Shown piece after piece: positions 1,138 to 29,917 of a DNA stretch of 33,442 nucleotides. Where the stretch lies: the IMG/VR virus record IMGVR_UViG_3300007734_000596, positions 1-33,442 of that record, one strand, 5' to 3'. The notes beneath the pieces are model-generated. The model was not told the origin of the DNA, did no database searches, and was given only the letters and a program-made list of their open reading frames with translations. Source of the DNA: a virus. Both the position numbers and the translations under genes were made by a program. The stretch's first letter is position 1. The number at the start of each line of letters is the position of its first letter.

Positions 1138-1166
1138 AGTCTACCCCGCAACGGAGCGCGGGTCAA
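1138..1166 (-). promoter_or_regulatory. Sigma70-type promoter TTGACC-N17-TAGACT
   Basis: On the minus strand TTGACC (1166-1161) is followed by exactly 17 bp and TAGACT (1143-1138). It lies in the largest gene-free gap of the left region (about 991-1240) and points at the zinc-ribbon/HNH-like gene, leaving a leader of roughly 140 nt if the TTG start at 990 is right. A second TTGACG sits 14 bp upstream of the -35. Apart from this promoter I see nothing else in the gap. Confidence 0.65.
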
Positions 1167-1240
1167 GCGGTGGCGTCAAGGTGGCAGCATCGCCCTACCC
1201 TCCGCCCGGCCGAGGGCGCCGGACGGGGGAGGGGAGCGGG

Positions 1241-1525
1241 TCAGACTCCGCCATCAATGGATGAGTATGGAACCTTGTTGACGGCGTCGAACGCCTGTTC
1301 CAGCAGAGCCGATTGGTGAGCCACGCTTGAGAAAAACTGCGACACGGCGCGGACTTCAGCGGGGGTTCCCTTGCTTGCGACGGCAGAGAGGATCTGGTAC
1401 ATCGCCATCAGCTCGGCCTGCTTACGATTTGACTTTTCGGCTACCTCGCCCTCGGCAAAGTAAGCCTCCGCCAGATCGATCAGGTGTTGCTTGTGCTGGT
1501 CGGGGGTGGCCTTTGGCTGTTTCAC
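1241..1525 (-). CDS. Small helical protein of unknown function, 94 aa
   Basis: Starts at GTG 1525 with TGGAG six bases upstream. The frame is open much further upstream, but that part is Arg/Pro-rich antisense-like sequence over the neighbouring gene. The protein (KQPKATPDQHKQHLIDLAEA, then YFAEGEVAEKSNRKQAELMA) looks mostly alpha-helical and charged, with a short hydrophobic-faced helix around AVSQFFSSVAHQSALLEQAF. There is no cysteine motif, signal peptide or membrane span, and I recognise no family. It lies downstream of the 98-aa gene and is separated from it by a stable hairpin. Confidence 0.65.
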   Translation of the reverse strand: MKQPKATPDQHKQHLIDLAEAYFAEGEVAEKSNRKQAELMAMYQILSAVASKGTPAEVRAVSQFFSSVAHQSALLEQAFDAVNKVPYSSIDGGV

Positions 1526-1550
1526 GGTATCTCCAGTGCCCGGTGATTGA

Positions 1551-1579
1551 CTCCCCACCTTCGGGCAGCGGGTGGGGAG
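1551..1579 (-). terminator. GC-rich intercistronic hairpin
   Basis: A perfect 9-bp inverted repeat, CTCCCCACC (1551-1559) and GGTGGGGAG (1571-1579), with an 11-nt loop, lies between two minus-strand genes. There is no U-tract on either strand, so it is a weak intrinsic terminator or an mRNA processing/stability hairpin. Confidence 0.4.
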
Positions 1580-1587
1580 GGAGCGGG

Positions 1588-1884
1588 TCAGGGGGTGACG
1601 ACGGCGGCGGCCTCGGACTCGGCGCGGATGCGCGCGGCCTTGAGCGCTTCGTCCGCCACGGCCTTTCGGCAGTGAATGATGTTGACCTTGTGGACGCACA
1701 GGTCGGCCTCTGCGGGCTCGACGAAGATCCACACGTTGCCGTCGCCGTCCGTGGTCATCCCGAGCGCGCGGCCGAGGCGCTTGACCGGCTCGGGCTGCGG
1801 GCGGGAGTCTCGAGTGAGGGCAGGCAGCGGCGGGAGGGAGGGGAAGGTCAGGTAGGCGACGTAGTTAAACGGGGGCGAGTGCAT
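1588..1884 (-). CDS. Unknown small protein, 98 aa
   Basis: Start ATG 1884 is preceded by CAGGAGCCACC, a good ribosome site. The 37 extra upstream codons in this frame are discarded as antisense-like. The N-terminus (MHSPPFNYVAYLTFPSLPPL) is proline-rich. The middle GMTTDGDGNVWIFVEPAEAD reads like a small beta sheet, and the C-terminus is an Ala/Arg/Glu helix. No family recognised. The stop is 36 bp before the 1551-1579 hairpin complex, and the gene follows the 114-aa gene with an 11-bp gap. Confidence 0.65.
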   Translation of the reverse strand: MHSPPFNYVAYLTFPSLPPLPALTRDSRPQPEPVKRLGRALGMTTDGDGNVWIFVEPAEADLCVHKVNIIHCRKAVADEALKAARIRAESEAAAVVTP

Positions 1885-1895
1885 GGTGGCTCCTG

Positions 1896-2240
1896 TCAGG
1901 TGGGGAGGGGAAGCGCGGCGAGCAGAGCCGCGCGCTGGTCTTCGGTACGGTCGGGCATGTCGAGGGCGATCGTCTCGCAGAGGTGCGCGCGGCACCAGAA
2001 CGCCTCCCGGGCTGTCCCATGCCCACAGACGGCCCAGAGTTGCCCGTAGGAGCGCCGAGCCGCGGCGCTCCAGTCGGTGCGGCGGGTGTAGAGCACAGCG
2101 CCGCCAAAGGGCCAGCCGGGGGCGCCGGCGAGGTCGAGGAGGATCGGCGAAAAGCCGAGCCCTGCGTCGCGCGCCTGGATGCGGGTGCAGGGGCGGAGGG
2201 TCGCGGCGGAGGCGAGGCGGAGGAGGTCGGCGGGCGTCAC
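1896..2240 (-). CDS. Unknown protein, 114 aa, coupled to a 10-codon upstream ORF
   Basis: The frame is open from 2501, but residues before GTG 2240 look like antisense of the neighbouring gene, so I start there (VTPADLLRLASAATLRPC). No Shine-Dalgarno precedes this GTG. Instead the stop of a 10-codon ORF (2237-2269), which has its own CGGAG site, overlaps the start as GTGA and suggests coupled translation. The protein has four cysteines (RPC, AVCGH, WCRAHLC) and aromatic-rich segments (GWPFGGAVLYTRRTDW) but no family I can name. Confidence 0.55.
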   Translation of the reverse strand: MTPADLLRLASAATLRPCTRIQARDAGLGFSPILLDLAGAPGWPFGGAVLYTRRTDWSAAARRSYGQLWAVCGHGTAREAFWCRAHLCETIALDMPDRTEDQRAALLAALPLPT

Positions 2241-2269
2241 GGCAGACCCATGGCTGTAATGAGGGTCAT
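2237..2269 (-). CDS. Possible 10-codon leader ORF
   Basis: ATG 2269 to TGA 2239-2237 reads MTLITAMGLP. CGGAG lies 5 bases upstream of the ATG, and the stop overlaps the next start (GTGA). It may simply deliver ribosomes to the downstream gene, which has no ribosome site of its own. Ten codons is too short to judge coding potential. Confidence 0.35.
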   Translation of the reverse strand: MTLITAMGLP

Positions 2270-2313
2270 AGGGACTCCGAGCCGAGGCCAGCGGCGGCCC
2301 CGGCGGTAGGTGT

Positions 2314-2329
2314 GGGCCCCGGAGGGCCC
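2314..2329 (-). terminator. Intercistronic GC hairpin
   Basis: GGGCCC (2314-2319), a 4-nt loop and GGGCCC (2324-2329) lie between the 84-aa gene and the 10-codon ORF. There is no U-tract, so it may attenuate or protect mRNA rather than terminate. Confidence 0.35.
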
Positions 2330-2337
2330 GAGGATGG

Positions 2338-2592
2338 TTAGACCCAAAACGGGCGGTATCGGGGCGCCGCATCGGGCCGGGGGATGGTCCGCTCCTCAGC
2401 CCTGACGGCTTCGATGTGGGCGGCGATGGTGGCCAGAGCCGAAGAATCGGGAGCGGCGCTGTGGGCGCAAGCGAGCACGCGATCGCAAGCGGCGACAACA
2501 TTGGAGTTCCCGGCGGCGGCCATCCGGCGGCGGAGAACCCGGATCGTGGCGGTGTTCATGTCGATGGAGGCGAAAGCGTCGGCGCGGTCCAT
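2338..2592 (-). CDS. Unknown small protein, 84 aa (first gene of module copy 1)
   Basis: Start ATG 2592 follows CCGGAGCACACC. Predicted mostly helical (MDRADAFASIDMNTATIRVL, RRMAAAGNSNVVAACDRVLA, ALATIAAHIEAVRAEERTIP). No family recognised. It is the first gene after copy 1 of the repeated promoter-leader module (2633-2703). An overlapping frame starting at ATG 2635 begins MSGADNNP, like the leader peptide of copy 2, but here it runs into this gene in another frame and does not stop at the start codon. Confidence 0.65.
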   Translation of the reverse strand: MDRADAFASIDMNTATIRVLRRRMAAAGNSNVVAACDRVLACAHSAAPDSSALATIAAHIEAVRAEERTIPRPDAAPRYRPFWV

Positions 2593-2632
2593 GGTGTGCT
2601 CCGGTTCGGCGGGGGTTGTTGTCGGCCCCGCT

Positions 2633-2703
2633 CATGTACTACATATACATTCGCGCTCCCCAGCCGTCAAGCGTTCGCCCCTCATCCGGCGCAAGATTCT
2701 TGC
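2633..2703 (-). promoter_or_regulatory. Promoter module, copy 1 (TTGACG-N17-TATATG-N6-ATGAG)
   Basis: On the minus strand: an upstream element AGAATCTTGC (about 2700), GAGGGGCG (2683-2676), 5 bp, TTGACG (2670-2665), 17 bp, TATATG (2647-2642), 6 bp and ATGAGCGGGGCC from 2635. The same order and spacings recur at 7406-7471 and 8858-8926. The -10 box sits where transcription would begin at or next to the ATG, which implies a leaderless transcript. Confidence 0.75.
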
Positions 2704-2729
2704 GGGCGCCGCGGGAAGGCCCACAACGA

Positions 2730-2781
2730 CGCGATCGCCGTGGTCCGCCCGGTCAACCTCCGGGGGAGCACAGCGATCGCG
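2730..2781. repeat. Long imperfect inverted repeat (stem-loop)
   Basis: CGCGATCGCCGTG (2730-2742) and CACAGCGATCGCG (2769-2781) are 12/13 complementary, and an inner CCCGG...CCGGG pair extends the stem. It lies between the 28-aa membrane gene (ends 2828) and promoter module copy 1, so it could insulate the two transcription units. No T-run follows on either strand. The rest of 2704-2827 shows nothing else. Confidence 0.6.
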
Positions 2782-2827
2782 GAGCCTTCGAGCGTGGGCT
2801 GTGAGGCAGCTAACCGACCCCGGCGGC

Positions 2828-2914
2828 TCAGCGCCACCAGCTCGGGCGGACGAGGCTGGCGGTGAAAACGAGGAGGGCGGTGAGCAGGACGGCGGCGAGG
2901 ATGGGGGAGGTCAT
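2828..2914 (-). CDS. 28-aa single-pass membrane micro-protein
   Basis: ATG 2914 to TGA 2828 encodes a 28-residue peptide: MTSP, an uninterrupted hydrophobic stretch (ILAAVLLTALLVFTASLV, 18 residues) and a basic, Trp-containing tail (RPSWWR). This is one transmembrane helix, likely N-out/C-in by the positive-inside rule. The start overlaps the previous stop as ATGA and has AAGGTG upstream. No family assigned. It is one of several micro-membrane proteins wedged between regulatory genes here, and the last gene before a large stem-loop. Confidence 0.65.
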   Translation of the reverse strand: MTSPILAAVLLTALLVFTASLVRPSWWR

Positions 2915-3549
2915 GGGGTCACCTTTTTGCGGTTGCGGGTTCGTTTGGGTAGCGGCTTGCCTATCAGGTGCGCCCGATAGACCTTCAACCGAGCGCGAGC
3001 GGTGCCCGCCTTCAAACCGACGGCGGCGGCGGCCTCGTTGATGGACAGGCCCTCCGCCGAGGTCAGCACGAAAAGTCGCATGGTCACCGGCTCGTGCTCG
3101 CGGCGAGTCGCGGCAATCCGAGCGGCGCGCGGGTCGAGGCCCAACCGGCGCCAGTTCCGGCGGAGCGTGTCCACAAGGCAGCCAATCTCGGCGGCGAGCT
3201 CGCCCGCGGTCACCCCGCCGGCGACGAAGCGAGCCCACGCGGCTCGGGCCACGTCCACGCGGAGCCCGTAGGGGGTGCAGCCGGCGGCGGCGCGCTTGGC
3301 CCGGAACGCCTCGGCGGCGGCGTCGATCTCGGCCTGCTTCGCCTTCGCCGCTTCCTGTCGGCGGACGTTGCCGCCACGATCGGCGGCGGGGCAGCACGGA
3401 AGATCGAGGCGCTTCCAAGCCTTGTGCAGCCCGCTTGGAGAGATCCCCAGCGGGGCCGCCAGCGTGTCGAGGGTCAGCAGCGGATCGGCCAGATAGGCGC
3501 GGTGGGCCTTTCGCGCGGCGGCGTGACTGAGTTTCTGTCCGGTCCTCAT
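2911..3549 (-). CDS. DNA-binding protein with three helix-turn-helix segments, 212 aa
   Basis: Three separate segments have the HTH pattern: residues about 24-49 (LDTLAAPLGISPSGLHKAWK), 112-137 (VTAGELAAEIGCLVDTLRRN) and 167-193 (LSINEAAAAVGLKAGTARAR). They are joined by basic helical linkers (an EAAKAKQAEIDAAAEAFRAK stretch) and followed by a very basic tail (PKRTRNRKK). Such a protein most likely binds DNA at an extended site as a regulator or replication/packaging accessory. The start at ATG 3549 overlaps the previous stop (ATGA). The 76 upstream codons in frame are antisense-like. It is coupled upstream to a ribbon-helix-helix gene and downstream to a micro-membrane protein. Confidence 0.7.
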   Translation of the reverse strand: MRTGQKLSHAAARKAHRAYLADPLLTLDTLAAPLGISPSGLHKAWKRLDLPCCPAADRGGNVRRQEAAKAKQAEIDAAAEAFRAKRAAAGCTPYGLRVDVARAAWARFVAGGVTAGELAAEIGCLVDTLRRNWRRLGLDPRAARIAATRREHEPVTMRLFVLTSAEGLSINEAAAAVGLKAGTARARLKVYRAHLIGKPLPKRTRNRKKVTP

Positions 3550-3719
3550 TGGGGCCGCTTGGCCGTGCCGATGGCTGCCCACTCGGCGACGATGCGAGAG
3601 AGGGGGACGCCGCGCCGCTGCGCCTCGGTGTGGGCCTCGGCGGAGAGGTCGGGCGGGAGGTAGACCGTGAGCTTGACGAGGTCGCGGGATGGGCGCCCGC
3701 GGGGCTTGGGGGCGGTCAT
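3546..3719 (-). CDS. Ribbon-helix-helix protein (Arc/CopG-like), 57 aa
   Basis: KLTVYLPPDLSAEAHTEAQR followed by GVPLSRIVAEW is a typical ribbon-helix-helix: a beta strand for the DNA groove and two helices for dimerisation. A basic arm (PKPRGRPSRD) precedes it. The start is ATG 3719, with GGGAGGTG upstream and an ATGA overlap with the previous gene, so the 6 extra codons are rejected. Likely a transcriptional repressor. It is a candidate, untested ligand for one of the palindromic operators in this window. Confidence 0.75.
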   Translation of the reverse strand: MTAPKPRGRPSRDLVKLTVYLPPDLSAEAHTEAQRRGVPLSRIVAEWAAIGTAKRPQ

Positions 3720-4084
3720 TGCACACCTCCCGGCCATCGGCCAAGGTCAATCGCGCACAGGCAGCACGCCTCGGCAAGCGTGGCGGACTCGTGCAACGTC
3801 AGCACAGCCTTTCCCGGCTGCTTCGAGACGAAAAGCCGGACTCGCCCCTCAGACGTTCGGCCCATGGTCCAGCCATCGCCGAGAAGGCGGAGGAAAACGC
3901 CGTCGGTGGCGCCTGAATAATCCATGAGGTCAGGCACCCACGGCCCGCGCGGATGGCTGGAACGAACCCACAGGATGCCGCGCTGTGACCTGCGCGGTTC
4001 CATCTTGTGTGATTCCGGCGCCGTGAAGCCCCAGCCCGGGAGGTCCATGGCGCGGCGGGCGGTTTCGATCTGCTCGGGGCTCAC
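3716..4084 (-). CDS. Unknown protein, 122 aa
   Basis: Start GTG 4084 follows GGGAGG at 5-bp spacing and overlaps the micro-protein stop as GTGA. Sequence begins VSPEQIETARRAMDLPGWGF. The centre (GVFLRLLGDGWTMGRTSEGR, VRLFVSKQPGKAVLTLHES) suggests a small beta-rich fold, followed by a Cys-containing helix (TLAEACCLCAIDL). No family recognised. It lies in a tightly coupled cluster with the ribbon-helix-helix gene. Confidence 0.65.
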   Translation of the reverse strand: MSPEQIETARRAMDLPGWGFTAPESHKMEPRRSQRGILWVRSSHPRGPWVPDLMDYSGATDGVFLRLLGDGWTMGRTSEGRVRLFVSKQPGKAVLTLHESATLAEACCLCAIDLGRWPGGVQ

Positions 4085-27320: not shown

Positions 27321-27371
27321 AGGCTACCGGCAGTTGGTCACGTTGTCAAGGGGCCCGTGACAAAGTGTCAC
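27321..27371 (-). promoter_or_regulatory. Leaderless portal promoter with 15-bp palindromic operator
   Basis: TTGACA (27349-27344), 17 bp, TAGCCT (27326-27321), 6 bp, ATG 27314. A 15-bp perfect palindrome GTGACA-AAG-TGTCAC (27357-27371) lies 7 bp upstream of the -35 and overlaps the terminase stop codon. The placement upstream of -35 would suit an activator. Confidence 0.7.
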
Positions 27372-29917
27372 GATGGGAGCGAGCGGGTCACGCCGGCCCG
27401 TTCGAGGCCGAGGCAGAAGTATCGGACGGTGTCCCATGCGTGATCGTCGCCCTTGACCTTCATTTCGTCGGCGCTGGTCTGCGGCGCCCATTGCAGGCCG
27501 GTCATCTCGCGGATCGCGTTCGTACAGCAGTCGTGGAACACGATGTGAGGCCGGCGCTCGGCGTCGAGGGCAAGGCGGCGCTCCACCGCGTCGTAGCCCG
27601 CGCGGCGGGCCTTCACGGCGGGCATACACCGGATGTCGTACTGCCGGTGCAAAGTGGCGATCGAGTTGGTATCTTCGGGGTCCGCCCAGCGCATTTCGAT
27701 GTGCTCGCGGCGCCCGGTGCCCTTGCAGTCCTGACAGATTGTCACGCCGTCGGGGCCTTTCGCCTGCCCCTGAGCGCCCGCAATCAACCACGTCCACCAG
27801 TCGGGGGAGCCGACGACAGCGGGCGTCTCTCCGCCGGGCCAGCACGACGGGCAGAGCTCGGCCTCGTGGATGGCCTGGGCATGGTCCAGCGTGGTCCGCT
27901 CGGGTTGGTAGCGCTCGCGGTAGACGTGCAGCACGTCGTCGGGAGCGAGGGCGCCCCACAGGTGGACGAATGGATCGCGCACGCCGAAGTCAATCGCGGT
28001 GAACCGGCGCCAGTCGGTCGGGATCGGGAAGGAGGGCACAACGTGGACCTCCCGCCGGAAGCCCGGGTGAACGCGGCCCTCGGCCTCGGTGATCGCGCCT
28101 TTCTTGCGGCTCGCGGCGTCGAAGCCTGTCCCGATGAGCTTGCGGAGGTAGGAGGCGGGGACGTGTGGGTTGTCCTCTCCGTCGAGGGGCGGCGGATGGG
28201 CCTCGTCAGCCGGCGGTGCTTCGCCCTTGTCCTCCCAGCCGACCAGCGAGCGCATCAGCGGCGTCCAGCCGGACAGGGGCGTCAGGGTGAAGACCTCAAG
28301 CCCGTGATGGTCAGCCAGTCGGAGGCGGCCCTCCTTCACCACCCCATCGTCGCGCGGCTCCTCATCCCACCAAATGCCGTGGATCTTGGCCCCTTGGAAG
28401 GCGTCACGGCCTTGCTCCACCACCTTGTTGACGATGACGCCGCCGCCGGGGAGGGTCATCGTCGCCTGCCCCTTCTGCGTCCAGTTTTTGCCGACGCAGC
28501 CCGGTGGCAGGTAACCCTCAATCGCCGGGCGCATAAATTCCATCGCCGTGTCCCAGGTCAGCGAGACGGCCCACACGCGACCGGGGCCCTCTTGGATGCG
28601 GGAGAGGTCGGCGCGGTTGATGCGGGCCCACTCCTTGACGGCGGGGTCATTTCGACCGAGTGCCATGGCAACGCAAATGGCGGCGCCGAGTCGGGTCTTT
28701 CCGCTGTTGTGGTGGTAGGCGGGGCCGACCTTGAAGCAGTTGGGGCCCGGTACCACCAGATCGTAGTGGTAATCGGTGCGGTCATACGTTACGGTTACCA
28801 CCTCAAGAGGGGGTGAGCATGAAGCCGTACAACTATCGAGAATGGCCCGTCGATCAGATCCGCCAGTGGGTGGAGGTTGACGGGAAGACCCATCAATGGA
28901 TCGGGGATCAACTCGGGACAACGCCGAAGCAGATCCACAAAATCTGCAAGCGGGAAGGGGTGAAGTCGCAACGCCGGGGGCCCCGCGCTGGGCCGGGGCA
29001 TCCAAACTGGAAGGGTGGTCGTCATCTGGATGTTGACGGCTACTGGATGGTGTGGGTGGCGGATCATCCGGGGGTACGGAAGCGTCCTGGTCGGGCGGGC
29101 TCCCAAGGGTACATCTTCGAGCATCGGCTGGTGATGGAGGCCAAACTCGGGCGCTACCTTGATCCCCAAGAGGTCGTTCATCACCTGAACGGCAAGAACG
29201 ACGACAACCGACCGGAGAATCTGGAGTTGTTCGCGTGCAACGCGGACCATCTTCGGGCCGAGTTGACGGGCCGGTGCCCAAACTGGACGGAGGATGGGAA
29301 GCGCCGGATGAGAGAAGGGCATCTTGGGCCCGGAGTGCGGCAACGGCGCGCCATTCACCCGATCGAAGCATCACCCGGTGAGCCCCCGTCGCCGTGAAAC
29401 TCGACCCGTCGGAGAGGTCCACCCGGTAGAGCGGGTCGGGCCCCTTGCGGGCGGTGGGGAAGGCGAGCGCGATCACCTCCTCGCCTTCGTACCACGCCAG
29501 AACGTGGACGGGCCCGGCGATGCTGTCGATGCGCCGATCGATGCCTTCCACCGGGTCGTAGATCAACGTCTCCCCGGCGAGGCAGCGATTCCCTCCTCTC
29601 ACCACCAGCGTATCCACCGACGGCCTCAGCGAATGGAGCGCCGCCCGCTGGGATGTCCGCTGCTCGACCACGCCGCACCGCGGACAGCGGAAGTCCACCC
29701 CACACGGCACCATTTCGACCGCCGGACAGGCGCGGCAGTGAGGCGCCCACGCGCGAAACCGAGCGATGGGGTGCTCCTGCCACCTTCGGTCAGCGGCGAT
29801 CAGCGCCTCGGCGGTCTTGCCAAGTTCCCCGCCCCGCCGCCGGCAGAGCTCCAGATAGATCGCGCGGGGCTCCCCGTGGAGTTCCCGCACGTCGATCGCG
29901 GCGAGGTCAAGGGGCAT
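27368..29917 (-). CDS. terL: Terminase large subunit interrupted by an intein, 849 aa (556 after splicing)
   Basis: Extein parts: an N-terminal zinc ribbon (CRACPAVEM...CGVDFRCPRCGV, residues 61-82), the Walker A P-loop formed by VVRGGNR joined to SGKTRLG after splicing, Walker B IHGIWWDEEP, and an RNase H-like nuclease with AIDFGVRDPF, an acidic RWADPEDTNS and GDDHAWDTVRY. A Cys-pair insert (CPSCWPGG and CQDCKGTG) interrupts the nuclease domain. TerL pumps and cuts genome concatemers with TerS. Residues 112-404 are an intein (28706-29584). Spliced length (556) is normal for this family; unspliced, the P-loop is broken and the motor should be dead. Start ATG 29917 overlaps TerS by 11 nt without a clear ribosome site. 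Confidence 0.9.
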   Translation of the reverse strand: MPLDLAAIDVRELHGEPRAIYLELCRRRGGELGKTAEALIAADRRWQEHPIARFRAWAPHCRACPAVEMVPCGVDFRCPRCGVVEQRTSQRAALHSLRPSVDTLVVRGGNRCLAGETLIYDPVEGIDRRIDSIAGPVHVLAWYEGEEVIALAFPTARKGPDPLYRVDLSDGSSFTATGAHRVMLRSGEWRAVAALRAQDALLSSGASHPPSSLGTGPSTRPEDGPRCTRTTPDSPVGCRRSCRSGDERPLGDQGSARVWPPSPADARRCTLGSPPDQDASVPPDDPPPTPSSSRQHPDDDHPSSLDAPAQRGAPGVATSPLPACRFCGSASALSRVDPRSIDGSSRQPPPTGGSDRRAILDSCTASCSPPLEVVTVTYDRTDYHYDLVVPGPNCFKVGPAYHHNSGKTRLGAAICVAMALGRNDPAVKEWARINRADLSRIQEGPGRVWAVSLTWDTAMEFMRPAIEGYLPPGCVGKNWTQKGQATMTLPGGGVIVNKVVEQGRDAFQGAKIHGIWWDEEPRDDGVVKEGRLRLADHHGLEVFTLTPLSGWTPLMRSLVGWEDKGEAPPADEAHPPPLDGEDNPHVPASYLRKLIGTGFDAASRKKGAITEAEGRVHPGFRREVHVVPSFPIPTDWRRFTAIDFGVRDPFVHLWGALAPDDVLHVYRERYQPERTTLDHAQAIHEAELCPSCWPGGETPAVVGSPDWWTWLIAGAQGQAKGPDGVTICQDCKGTGRREHIEMRWADPEDTNSIATLHRQYDIRCMPAVKARRAGYDAVERRLALDAERRPHIVFHDCCTNAIREMTGLQWAPQTSADEMKVKGDDHAWDTVRYFCLGLERAGVTRSLPS
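28706..29584 (-). mobile_element. Intein in the TerL P-loop, with an antisense HNH gene in place of a HEN domain
   Basis: Boundaries: Cys1 (codon 29584-29582) after GGNR, and final HHN (Asn codon 28708-28706) before Ser+1 of SGKT. Block A: CLAGETLIYDPVEG. Block B: SSFTATGAHRVM with TxxH at positions 66-69. Block F/G: TDYHYDLVVPGPNCFKVG, then PAYHHN. Splicing parts add up to about 126 residues (about 92 N-terminal plus 34 C-terminal), the size of a mini-intein. The roughly 167-residue middle is Pro/Ser/Arg-rich and lacks any in-frame LAGLIDADG or HNH motif. On the other strand this stretch is a complete HNH gene. All splicing residues are intact, so splicing is expected. Confidence 0.85.
28819..29397 (+). 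CDS. HNH homing endonuclease, encoded antisense inside the intein, 192 aa
   Basis: The only rightward gene in the window. Residues 26-46 form an HTH-like segment (WIGDQLGTTPKQIHKICKRE), followed by NWKGGRHLDVDGYWMVWVAD and the HNH_3-type core FEHRLVMEAKLGRYLDPQEV, VHHLNGKNDDNRPENLELF (His121-His122, Asn124, Asn134). This is a standard phage homing endonuclease arrangement. Start ATG 28819 has AAGAGGGGG about 8 bp upstream; GTG 28813 is an alternative. The last ~30 residues (HLGPGVRQRRAIHPIEASPG...) lie opposite intein block B and look like read-through rather than a domain. It would cleave intein-free terL to spread the element. No strong promoter is visible upstream. Confidence 0.85.
   Translation: MKPYNYREWPVDQIRQWVEVDGKTHQWIGDQLGTTPKQIHKICKREGVKSQRRGPRAGPGHPNWKGGRHLDVDGYWMVWVADHPGVRKRPGRAGSQGYIFEHRLVMEAKLGRYLDPQEVVHHLNGKNDDNRPENLELFACNADHLRAELTGRCPNWTEDGKRRMREGHLGPGVRQRRAIHPIEASPGEPPSP

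What the first reader, a model, noticed from the sequence alone, without database searches (positions are those of the whole stretch)
28706..29584. Intein whose endonuclease is a separate gene on the opposite strand
The TerL P-loop carries an intact intein (Cys1 ... HHN/Ser+1), but its middle is not an in-frame LAGLIDADG or HNH domain. The complementary strand of that middle encodes a complete HNH homing endonuclease with its own ribosome site and stop. The intein frame stays open across the antisense of that gene. Known inteins either carry an in-frame endonuclease or are mini-inteins; an antisense nested endonuclease would be a new composite of protein splicing and homing. It decouples endonuclease expression (rightward transcript) from late terminase expression and requires one sequence to satisfy two proteins. 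It also predicts that the HNH mRNA is antisense to terL.
Basis: partly seen in the sequence, partly recalled or inferred. Interest (0 to 1): 0.92.

Follow-up and report, generated by a model that had tools for sequence, protein, structure and literature searches.

The report
Inteins hiding antisense homing endonucleases
A self-splicing protein insert in a phage DNA-packaging motor gene carries, on the opposite DNA strand, the gene for the DNA-cutting enzyme that probably spreads it, and the same two-strand arrangement recurs in over a hundred distinct lineages, including cultured phages, although I found no published description of it.

Summary
In this phage contig, TerL (27368-29917, -) has an intein at 28706-29584 in the Walker A motif (GGNR^SGKT). 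An intact HNH endonuclease gene lies antisense inside it (28813-29397, +), and the intein frame stays open across it. In the window alone the open frame is weak evidence (P about 0.04 at 67% GC).

Relatives settle it. In 108 clusters of HNH homologues (<85% identity, GC 29-71%), HNH is antisense inside an open P-loop ATPase frame, almost always with recognisable intein motifs. The overlap phase is always the same. There are 0 intein-frame stops where synonymous shuffling expects 714; homologues outside this arrangement show 339 against 385.

Selection divides cleanly: HNH evolves as a protein (dN/dS 0.05-0.33), the splicing domains as a protein on the other strand (pN/pS 0.22-0.28), and the intein middle is kept only stop-free. 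AlphaFold gives a Hint fold with a disordered middle. TerL alleles exist as empty, mini-intein and antisense-HNH forms, with divergence peaking at the joint, as homing predicts.

Cultured members include phages Ymer and PHS3. The nearest precedent found is antisense endonuclease genes in group I introns. Splicing, cleavage and HNH transcription are untested.

The parts
27368..29917 (-). terL ORF (large terminase) with intein, 849 aa
   Evidence: phrog_2 2.4e-15, phrog_5653 6e-14; Pfam Terminase_6N 1.5e-4, just under its gathering score
29585..29917 (-). N-extein, ending ...VVRGGNR (first half of Walker A)
   Evidence: empty-site relatives read GGNR directly followed by SGKT
28706..29584 (-). 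Intein, 293 aa, Cys1 ... His-Asn, +1 Ser
   Evidence: C1, K47, H69, D275, H292, N293 invariant over 46 inteins; TIGR01445 6e-4; AlphaFold and PDB inteins
29315..29584 (-). N-terminal splicing domain (intein aa 1-90, blocks A and B; block-B His69 codon 29378-29380)
   Evidence: pLDDT 95-98; purifying selection in relatives, pN/pS 0.28
28706..28807 (-). C-terminal splicing domain (intein aa 260-293, blocks F and G)
   Evidence: pLDDT 96-98; pN/pS 0.22 in relatives
28813..29397 (+). HNH homing endonuclease gene, antisense inside the intein (194 aa from GTG 28813; ATG alternative at 28819): N-terminal HTH plus HNH_3
   Evidence: model pLDDT 85.5, best PDB match I-HmuI, weak; window vs L021 pN 0.26, pS 0.73
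28807..28810 (+). Shine-Dalgarno-like GAGG, 8 nt before ATG 28819
   Evidence: sequence; stronger SDs in other lineages
29315..29397 (.). Stretch coding on both strands: HNH tail opposite the intein N-splicing domain, including block-B His
   Evidence: codon-position pattern changes here in relatives; in Ymer vs PHS3 both proteins are 51% identical over 81 aa of such overlap
27371..28705 (-). C-extein, starting SGKT (Walker A Lys/Thr) to the TerL C terminus

Best explanation
This is a mobile intein whose homing endonuclease is a separate gene on the complementary strand of the intein coding sequence. The terL transcript is translated straight through; the region antisense to the HNH gene becomes a long, disordered, unselected loop at the place where ordinary inteins hold an in-frame endonuclease domain, and the Hint domain splices it out to restore the Walker A motif. 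The HNH protein is made from its own start site on the opposite strand. It cleaves intein-less P-loop DNA, and repair copies the intein and the antisense gene together. Shown by sequence: the anatomy, the selection on each strand, avoidance of stops, presence/absence alleles, divergence at the joint. Inferred: splicing, cleavage specificity, HNH expression. The fixed overlap phase argues for a single origin of the composite, followed by spread among P-loop ATPase genes.
For: (1) Recurrence: all 80 loci (79, L092) and 74 of 76 loci (L315 is cut by a contig end) have HNH antisense inside an open frame in the same phase; also Ymer-genus phages, Setonix and PHS3 and bacterial contigs. (2) Intein-phase stops 0 observed vs 714 expected over 108 clusters; other antisense phases 1164 vs 1053 and 886 vs 886; forbidden Phe-[IMTNK] dipeptides 0 vs 82. 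Controls outside the arrangement: 339 vs 385 stops, 47 vs 53 dipeptides. (3) Close pairs: substitutions at HNH codon positions 79/49/253, HNH dN/dS 0.05-0.33, antisense frame mostly above 1; intein frame pN/pS 0.28 (N domain), 1.18 (overlap), 0.22 (C domain), 0.23-0.33 (exteins). (4) Pfam Intein_splicing hits 41 of 44 inteins, spanning the antisense gene in L253; catalytic residues invariant. (5) AlphaFold Hint fold with middle pLDDT 42-55; Foldseek to RecA, DnaB and DnaE inteins. (6) TerL alleles: 98 empty, 9 mini-intein of 131-136 aa, 26 antisense-HNH. L194 (intein) vs L193 (empty): 98.6% identity over 3 kb, with synonymous changes in both codons flanking the joint; divergence within 30 nt is 13.1% for intein vs empty, 4.5% for empty vs empty, 6.0% for intein vs intein.
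Against: No splicing, cleavage or transcript data. No sigma-70-like promoter in the window near HNH, and only about half the lineages have a clear Shine-Dalgarno. The window intein gives no Pfam Intein_splicing hit. The HNH-I-HmuI structural match is weak (E 0.06). The window itself has no close relatives and no empty allele was found for it. The divergence-peak comparison rests on 12 non-independent pairs.
Confidence: 0.9

Rival explanations
1. The HNH ORF is a chance ORF opposite a real intein middle domain.
For: The window is 67% GC in this region, where long chance ORFs are common.
Against: HNH matches Pfam and PHROGs families; substitutions concentrate at HNH third positions, and the intein frame in the same region has pN/pS above 1; HNH catalytic residues are invariant.
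Confidence: 0.01
2. The open intein frame over HNH is incidental: terL is a broken gene or is expressed as two pieces (split intein, trans-splicing), as in 'fractured genes' with a free-standing endonuclease between split-intein halves.
For: Split inteins with intervening endonuclease genes are known (Dassa et al. 2009, cited in PMC3229294; the paper itself was not held).
Against: No intein-frame stops in 108 clusters down to 29% GC against 714 expected; TerL exteins and both splicing domains under purifying selection; no split form seen among the loci examined.
Confidence: 0.03
3. The HNH gene sits in an RNA intron (group I or II) nested in the intein, so the antisense region is never translated.
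For: Antisense endonuclease genes occur in group I introns (PMC9548176).
Against: No Rfam match in the window; an RNA intron would not need the frame to stay open.
Confidence: 0.01
4. The HNH protein is no homing enzyme but a packaging or marker-exclusion nuclease housed in the intein.
For: HNH proteins can cooperate with terminase (HK97 example discussed in PMC10448857); phage endonucleases can exclude competitors.
Against: Presence/absence alleles, divergence peak at the joint, mini-intein alleles without HNH, and the same composite in helicases and a primase-helicase. Exclusion and homing are not exclusive.
Confidence: 0.08

Closest known systems
Large inteins with in-frame endonuclease domains, including TerL P-loop inteins of mycobacteriophages (PMC5050341)
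   Same: Hint splicing domain, insertion in the TerL ATPase domain, mobile between alleles
   Different: There the endonuclease is a domain of the intein protein; here it is a separate gene on the complementary strand, and the intein middle is not a domain. PMC6801210 describes nested endonuclease domains at a conserved site of the Hint fold
Antisense homing endonuclease genes in nuclear group I introns (I-DsqI, PMC9548176)
   Same: Endonuclease gene on the strand opposite to a self-splicing element, expressed in vivo and active
   Different: There the splicing element is RNA, so no second reading frame must stay open; His-Cys enzyme; rDNA
Fractured genes: split inteins with a free-standing endonuclease gene between the halves (Dassa et al. 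2009; cited, not readable here)
   Same: Separate endonuclease gene in the middle of an intein (from memory)
   Different: There the host gene is broken in two and spliced in trans; here one continuous frame runs across the antisense gene
Free-standing phage HNH homing endonucleases (I-HmuI type, HNH_3, phrog_20891 and phrog_10730)
   Same: HNH motif, DNA-binding HTH, homing-type co-conversion signature
   Different: Not free-standing: nested antisense in the element it is inferred to mobilise

Membership tests
Intein | Nucleophile at position 1, block-B His, C-terminal His-Asn, +1 Ser/Thr/Cys | tested here: met
   C1, H69, H292, N293 invariant over 46 sequences; +1 Ser or Thr, occasionally Cys
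Intein | Hint fold from the N and C parts | tested here: met
   AlphaFold pLDDT 95-98; Foldseek to NpuDnaB and NpuDnaE (TMt 0.81-0.82) and RecA inteins
Intein | Precise insertion in a conserved motif; intein-less alleles restore the host sequence | tested here: met
   GGNR^SGKT empty alleles in two TerL groups; none found for the window itself
Intein | Protein splicing | not testable with these tools
   needs expression and mass spectrometry
Large intein with in-frame endonuclease domain | LAGLIDADG or HNH domain in the intein reading frame | tested here: not met
   middle is unselected (pN/pS 1.18) and disordered; HNH is on the other strand
Split intein / fractured gene | Host gene and intein in two ORFs | tested here: not met
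   continuous frame in 108 clusters
HNH homing endonuclease | HNH catalytic motif and DNA-binding region | tested here: met
   HNH_3; invariant HR, HH, N, N, H positions; HTH
HNH homing endonuclease | Cleaves element-less allele at the insertion site | tested here: inconclusive
   only indirect: divergence peak at the joint
HNH homing endonuclease | Own gene under purifying selection | tested here: met
   dN/dS 0.05-0.33 in close pairs; window vs L021 pN 0.26, pS 0.73

The most novel reading that the evidence does not exclude
A large class of mobile inteins codes on both strands. The opposite-strand endonuclease is expressed under separate control from the host gene, and its transcript is antisense to the packaging-motor mRNA, so element mobility and host-gene expression are coupled antagonistically.
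Probability: 0.25. Interest if true: 0.93.

Novelty: new variant of a known kind. Interest (0 to 1): 0.87.

Why it matters
Inteins are usually described as either carrying an in-frame endonuclease or lacking one. A third architecture, spread over diverse phages and apparently overlooked because annotation keeps one strand, changes how mobile inteins are catalogued. It is also a clean natural case of antisense overlap in which one frame is a real protein and the other is held only stop-free, with a handover of constraint at a defined boundary. Cultured phages carry it, so splicing, cleavage and two-strand expression are directly testable.

Tried and rejected
TerL protein as a query against IMG/VR found no relative of the window, so conclusions about alleles come from other TerL groups. 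In-frame stops above the C-terminal half of some inteins (L119, L126, L147, L201) first looked like split inteins; reading the loci showed 131-136 aa mini-inteins. Promoter and terminator scan of the window: nothing. Rfam and tRNA scans: nothing. HNH relatives in Mycobacterium phage Bipolar and cyanophage Cr-LKS3 are not antisense inteins; Providencia phage PSTNGR2lys has an ordinary gene at the match. L014, L015 and L360 lack the arrangement. Ten literature searches found no description of antisense endonuclease genes in inteins; the library is open-access only, and the fractured-genes paper was not held.

Full report
What is in the window. The window is a 33,442-base virus record. TerL lies on the minus strand at 27368-29917. 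It is interrupted in the Walker A motif, GGNR^SGKT, by a 293-aa intein at 28706-29584, exactly the coordinates of the finding. Inside it, on the plus strand, is an HNH gene at 28813-29397, with ATG at 28819 and GAGG 8 nt upstream. In the window alone the open intein frame across HNH is only mildly surprising: 2.3 stops expected, P=0.044. The case therefore rests on relatives.

Recurrence. HNH homologues from IMG/VR are, almost without exception, antisense inside a long open frame. All 80 loci fetched with the HNH profile have it (79, L092), as do 74 of 76 loci from a second, more distant profile; of the two others, L315 is cut by a contig end. G+C ranges from 29% to 71%. Isolated phages have it too: Pectobacterium phages Ymer, Abuela, Sabo, Amona, Koroua, Pappous and Taid, Dickeya phage Setonix, and Pseudoalteromonas phage PHS3 (the frame itself was read in Ymer and PHS3, the others match Ymer DNA at 96-100%). 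In every case examined the overlap phase is the same: first codon positions face each other, and HNH wobble positions face intein second positions. Three phases are possible, and this is not the easiest one to keep open, so one origin of the composite is the simplest reading (inference).

Stops. In this phase an intein-frame stop arises from NTT|A, NTC|A or NCT|A on the HNH strand. Shuffling synonymous codons within each HNH gene gives 714 expected stops in 108 clusters (<85% protein identity); 0 are observed. The other antisense phases show 1164 against 1053 and 886 against 886 (the last is fixed by the codons themselves). Phe followed by Ile, Met, Thr, Asn or Lys makes a stop unavoidable: 0 observed, 82 expected. 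In 33 homologues outside the arrangement, stops are 339 against 385 expected; in 32 such homologues the dipeptides are 47 against 53. Loci entered the 108 because the frame is open, but nearly all fetched homologues of these profiles qualified, so the selection effect is small.

Which protein is selected. In close pairs, substitutions fall at HNH codon positions 1/2/3 as 79/49/253; HNH dN/dS is 0.05-0.33, while the antisense frame is mostly above 1. Read in the intein frame, pN/pS is 0.33 (N-extein), 0.28 (N-splicing domain), 1.18 (overlap), 0.22 (C-splicing domain) and 0.23 (C-extein). The middle of the intein is thus kept stop-free and nothing more. At the HNH 3' tail, which faces the N-splicing domain, the pattern changes from 0.09/0.07/0.26 substitutions per codon position to 0.24/0.29/0.23, so constraint passes from HNH to the intein there. 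In Ymer versus PHS3 both proteins are 51% identical over an 81-aa overlap, a stretch coding for two proteins. The window against its nearest HNH relative L021 shows the same: HNH pN 0.26, pS 0.73; intein frame pN 0.42, pS 0.23.

The splicing domain. Cys1, block-B His69, His292 and Asn293 are invariant in 46 aligned inteins. Pfam Intein_splicing matches 41 of 44; the window intein is not among them, but matches TIGR01445 at 6e-4. AlphaFold gives pLDDT 95-98 for residues 1-90 and about 260-293, and 42-58 for nearly all between. Foldseek finds RecA, DnaB, DnaE and gp41-1 inteins. The HNH model has an HTH and an HNH region; its best PDB match is I-HmuI, weakly.

Mobility. In two TerL groups there are 98 empty, 9 mini-intein (131-136 aa) and 26 antisense-HNH alleles at GGNR^SGKT. 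L194 with the element and L193 without it are 98.6% identical over 3 kb of flank, and the two codons at the joint differ synonymously (CGC|AGC versus AGG|TCC). Divergence within 30 nt of the joint is 13.1% for element versus empty, against 4.5% (empty versus empty) and 6.0% (element versus element), as co-conversion after cleavage predicts. HNH and intein distances correlate after allowing for TerL distance (partial rho 0.44).

Range. Two insertion points in Walker A are used: x^[ST]GK in 34 and GK^T in 10 of 44. Hosts are Terminase_3 and Terminase_6 proteins and other P-loop ATPases: SNF2-type helicases (L244, L344), a strawberry-notch-type helicase in a Polaromonas contig (L253) and a primase-helicase-like protein (L080).

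Mechanism. Translation of terL runs through the antisense region, giving a disordered loop in the excised intein; the HNH enzyme is made from the other strand and is inferred to cut intein-less P-loop DNA. Splicing, cleavage and HNH expression are inferred. About half the lineages have a good Shine-Dalgarno before HNH; no sigma-70-like promoter was seen in the window. Whether the antisense transcript affects terL is unknown.

Known relatives. TerL inteins with in-frame endonucleases splice and cut (PMC5050341). Antisense endonuclease genes are known in group I introns (PMC9548176), where no second frame has to be kept open. Split inteins with an intervening endonuclease gene were described by Dassa et al. 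2009, which I could not read here. Searches of the open-access literature found no antisense endonuclease gene in an intein; a report in a journal not held cannot be excluded.

Noticed in passing
L017 (Mycobacterium phage Bipolar) 1740-3743 and 2447-2998; L020 (cyanophage Cr-LKS3) 1830-3809 and 2216-2968: HNH ORFs on the same strand but in another frame inside a DNA-methylase ORF that stays open; no intein motifs seen. A possible second kind of overprinted endonuclease gene.
   Followed up: partly
L258 1523-4489 (-) and 3004-3471 (+): DNA methylase from a Nitrospira contig with an antisense HNH in the same phase but no intein motifs.
   Followed up: partly
L244, L253, L344, L080: The antisense-HNH intein also occurs in helicases and a primase-helicase-like protein, at a P-loop.
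   Followed up: partly
L025 2189-5341 (-), L328 1072-4362 (-): TerL ORFs that appear to hold two inteins (a second Hint domain downstream of the antisense-HNH one).
   Followed up: no
L018 (KX912252.1) 1149-3275: PHS3 record annotates HNH and a truncated terL; the TerL ORF with intein runs across the HNH gene. In Ymer (L016) the TerL ORF is called hypothetical and HNH is not annotated.
   Followed up: yes
L126, L147, L201 and six others: Mini-inteins without HNH at the same TerL site as antisense-HNH alleles: candidates for the decay stage of the homing cycle.
   Followed up: partly
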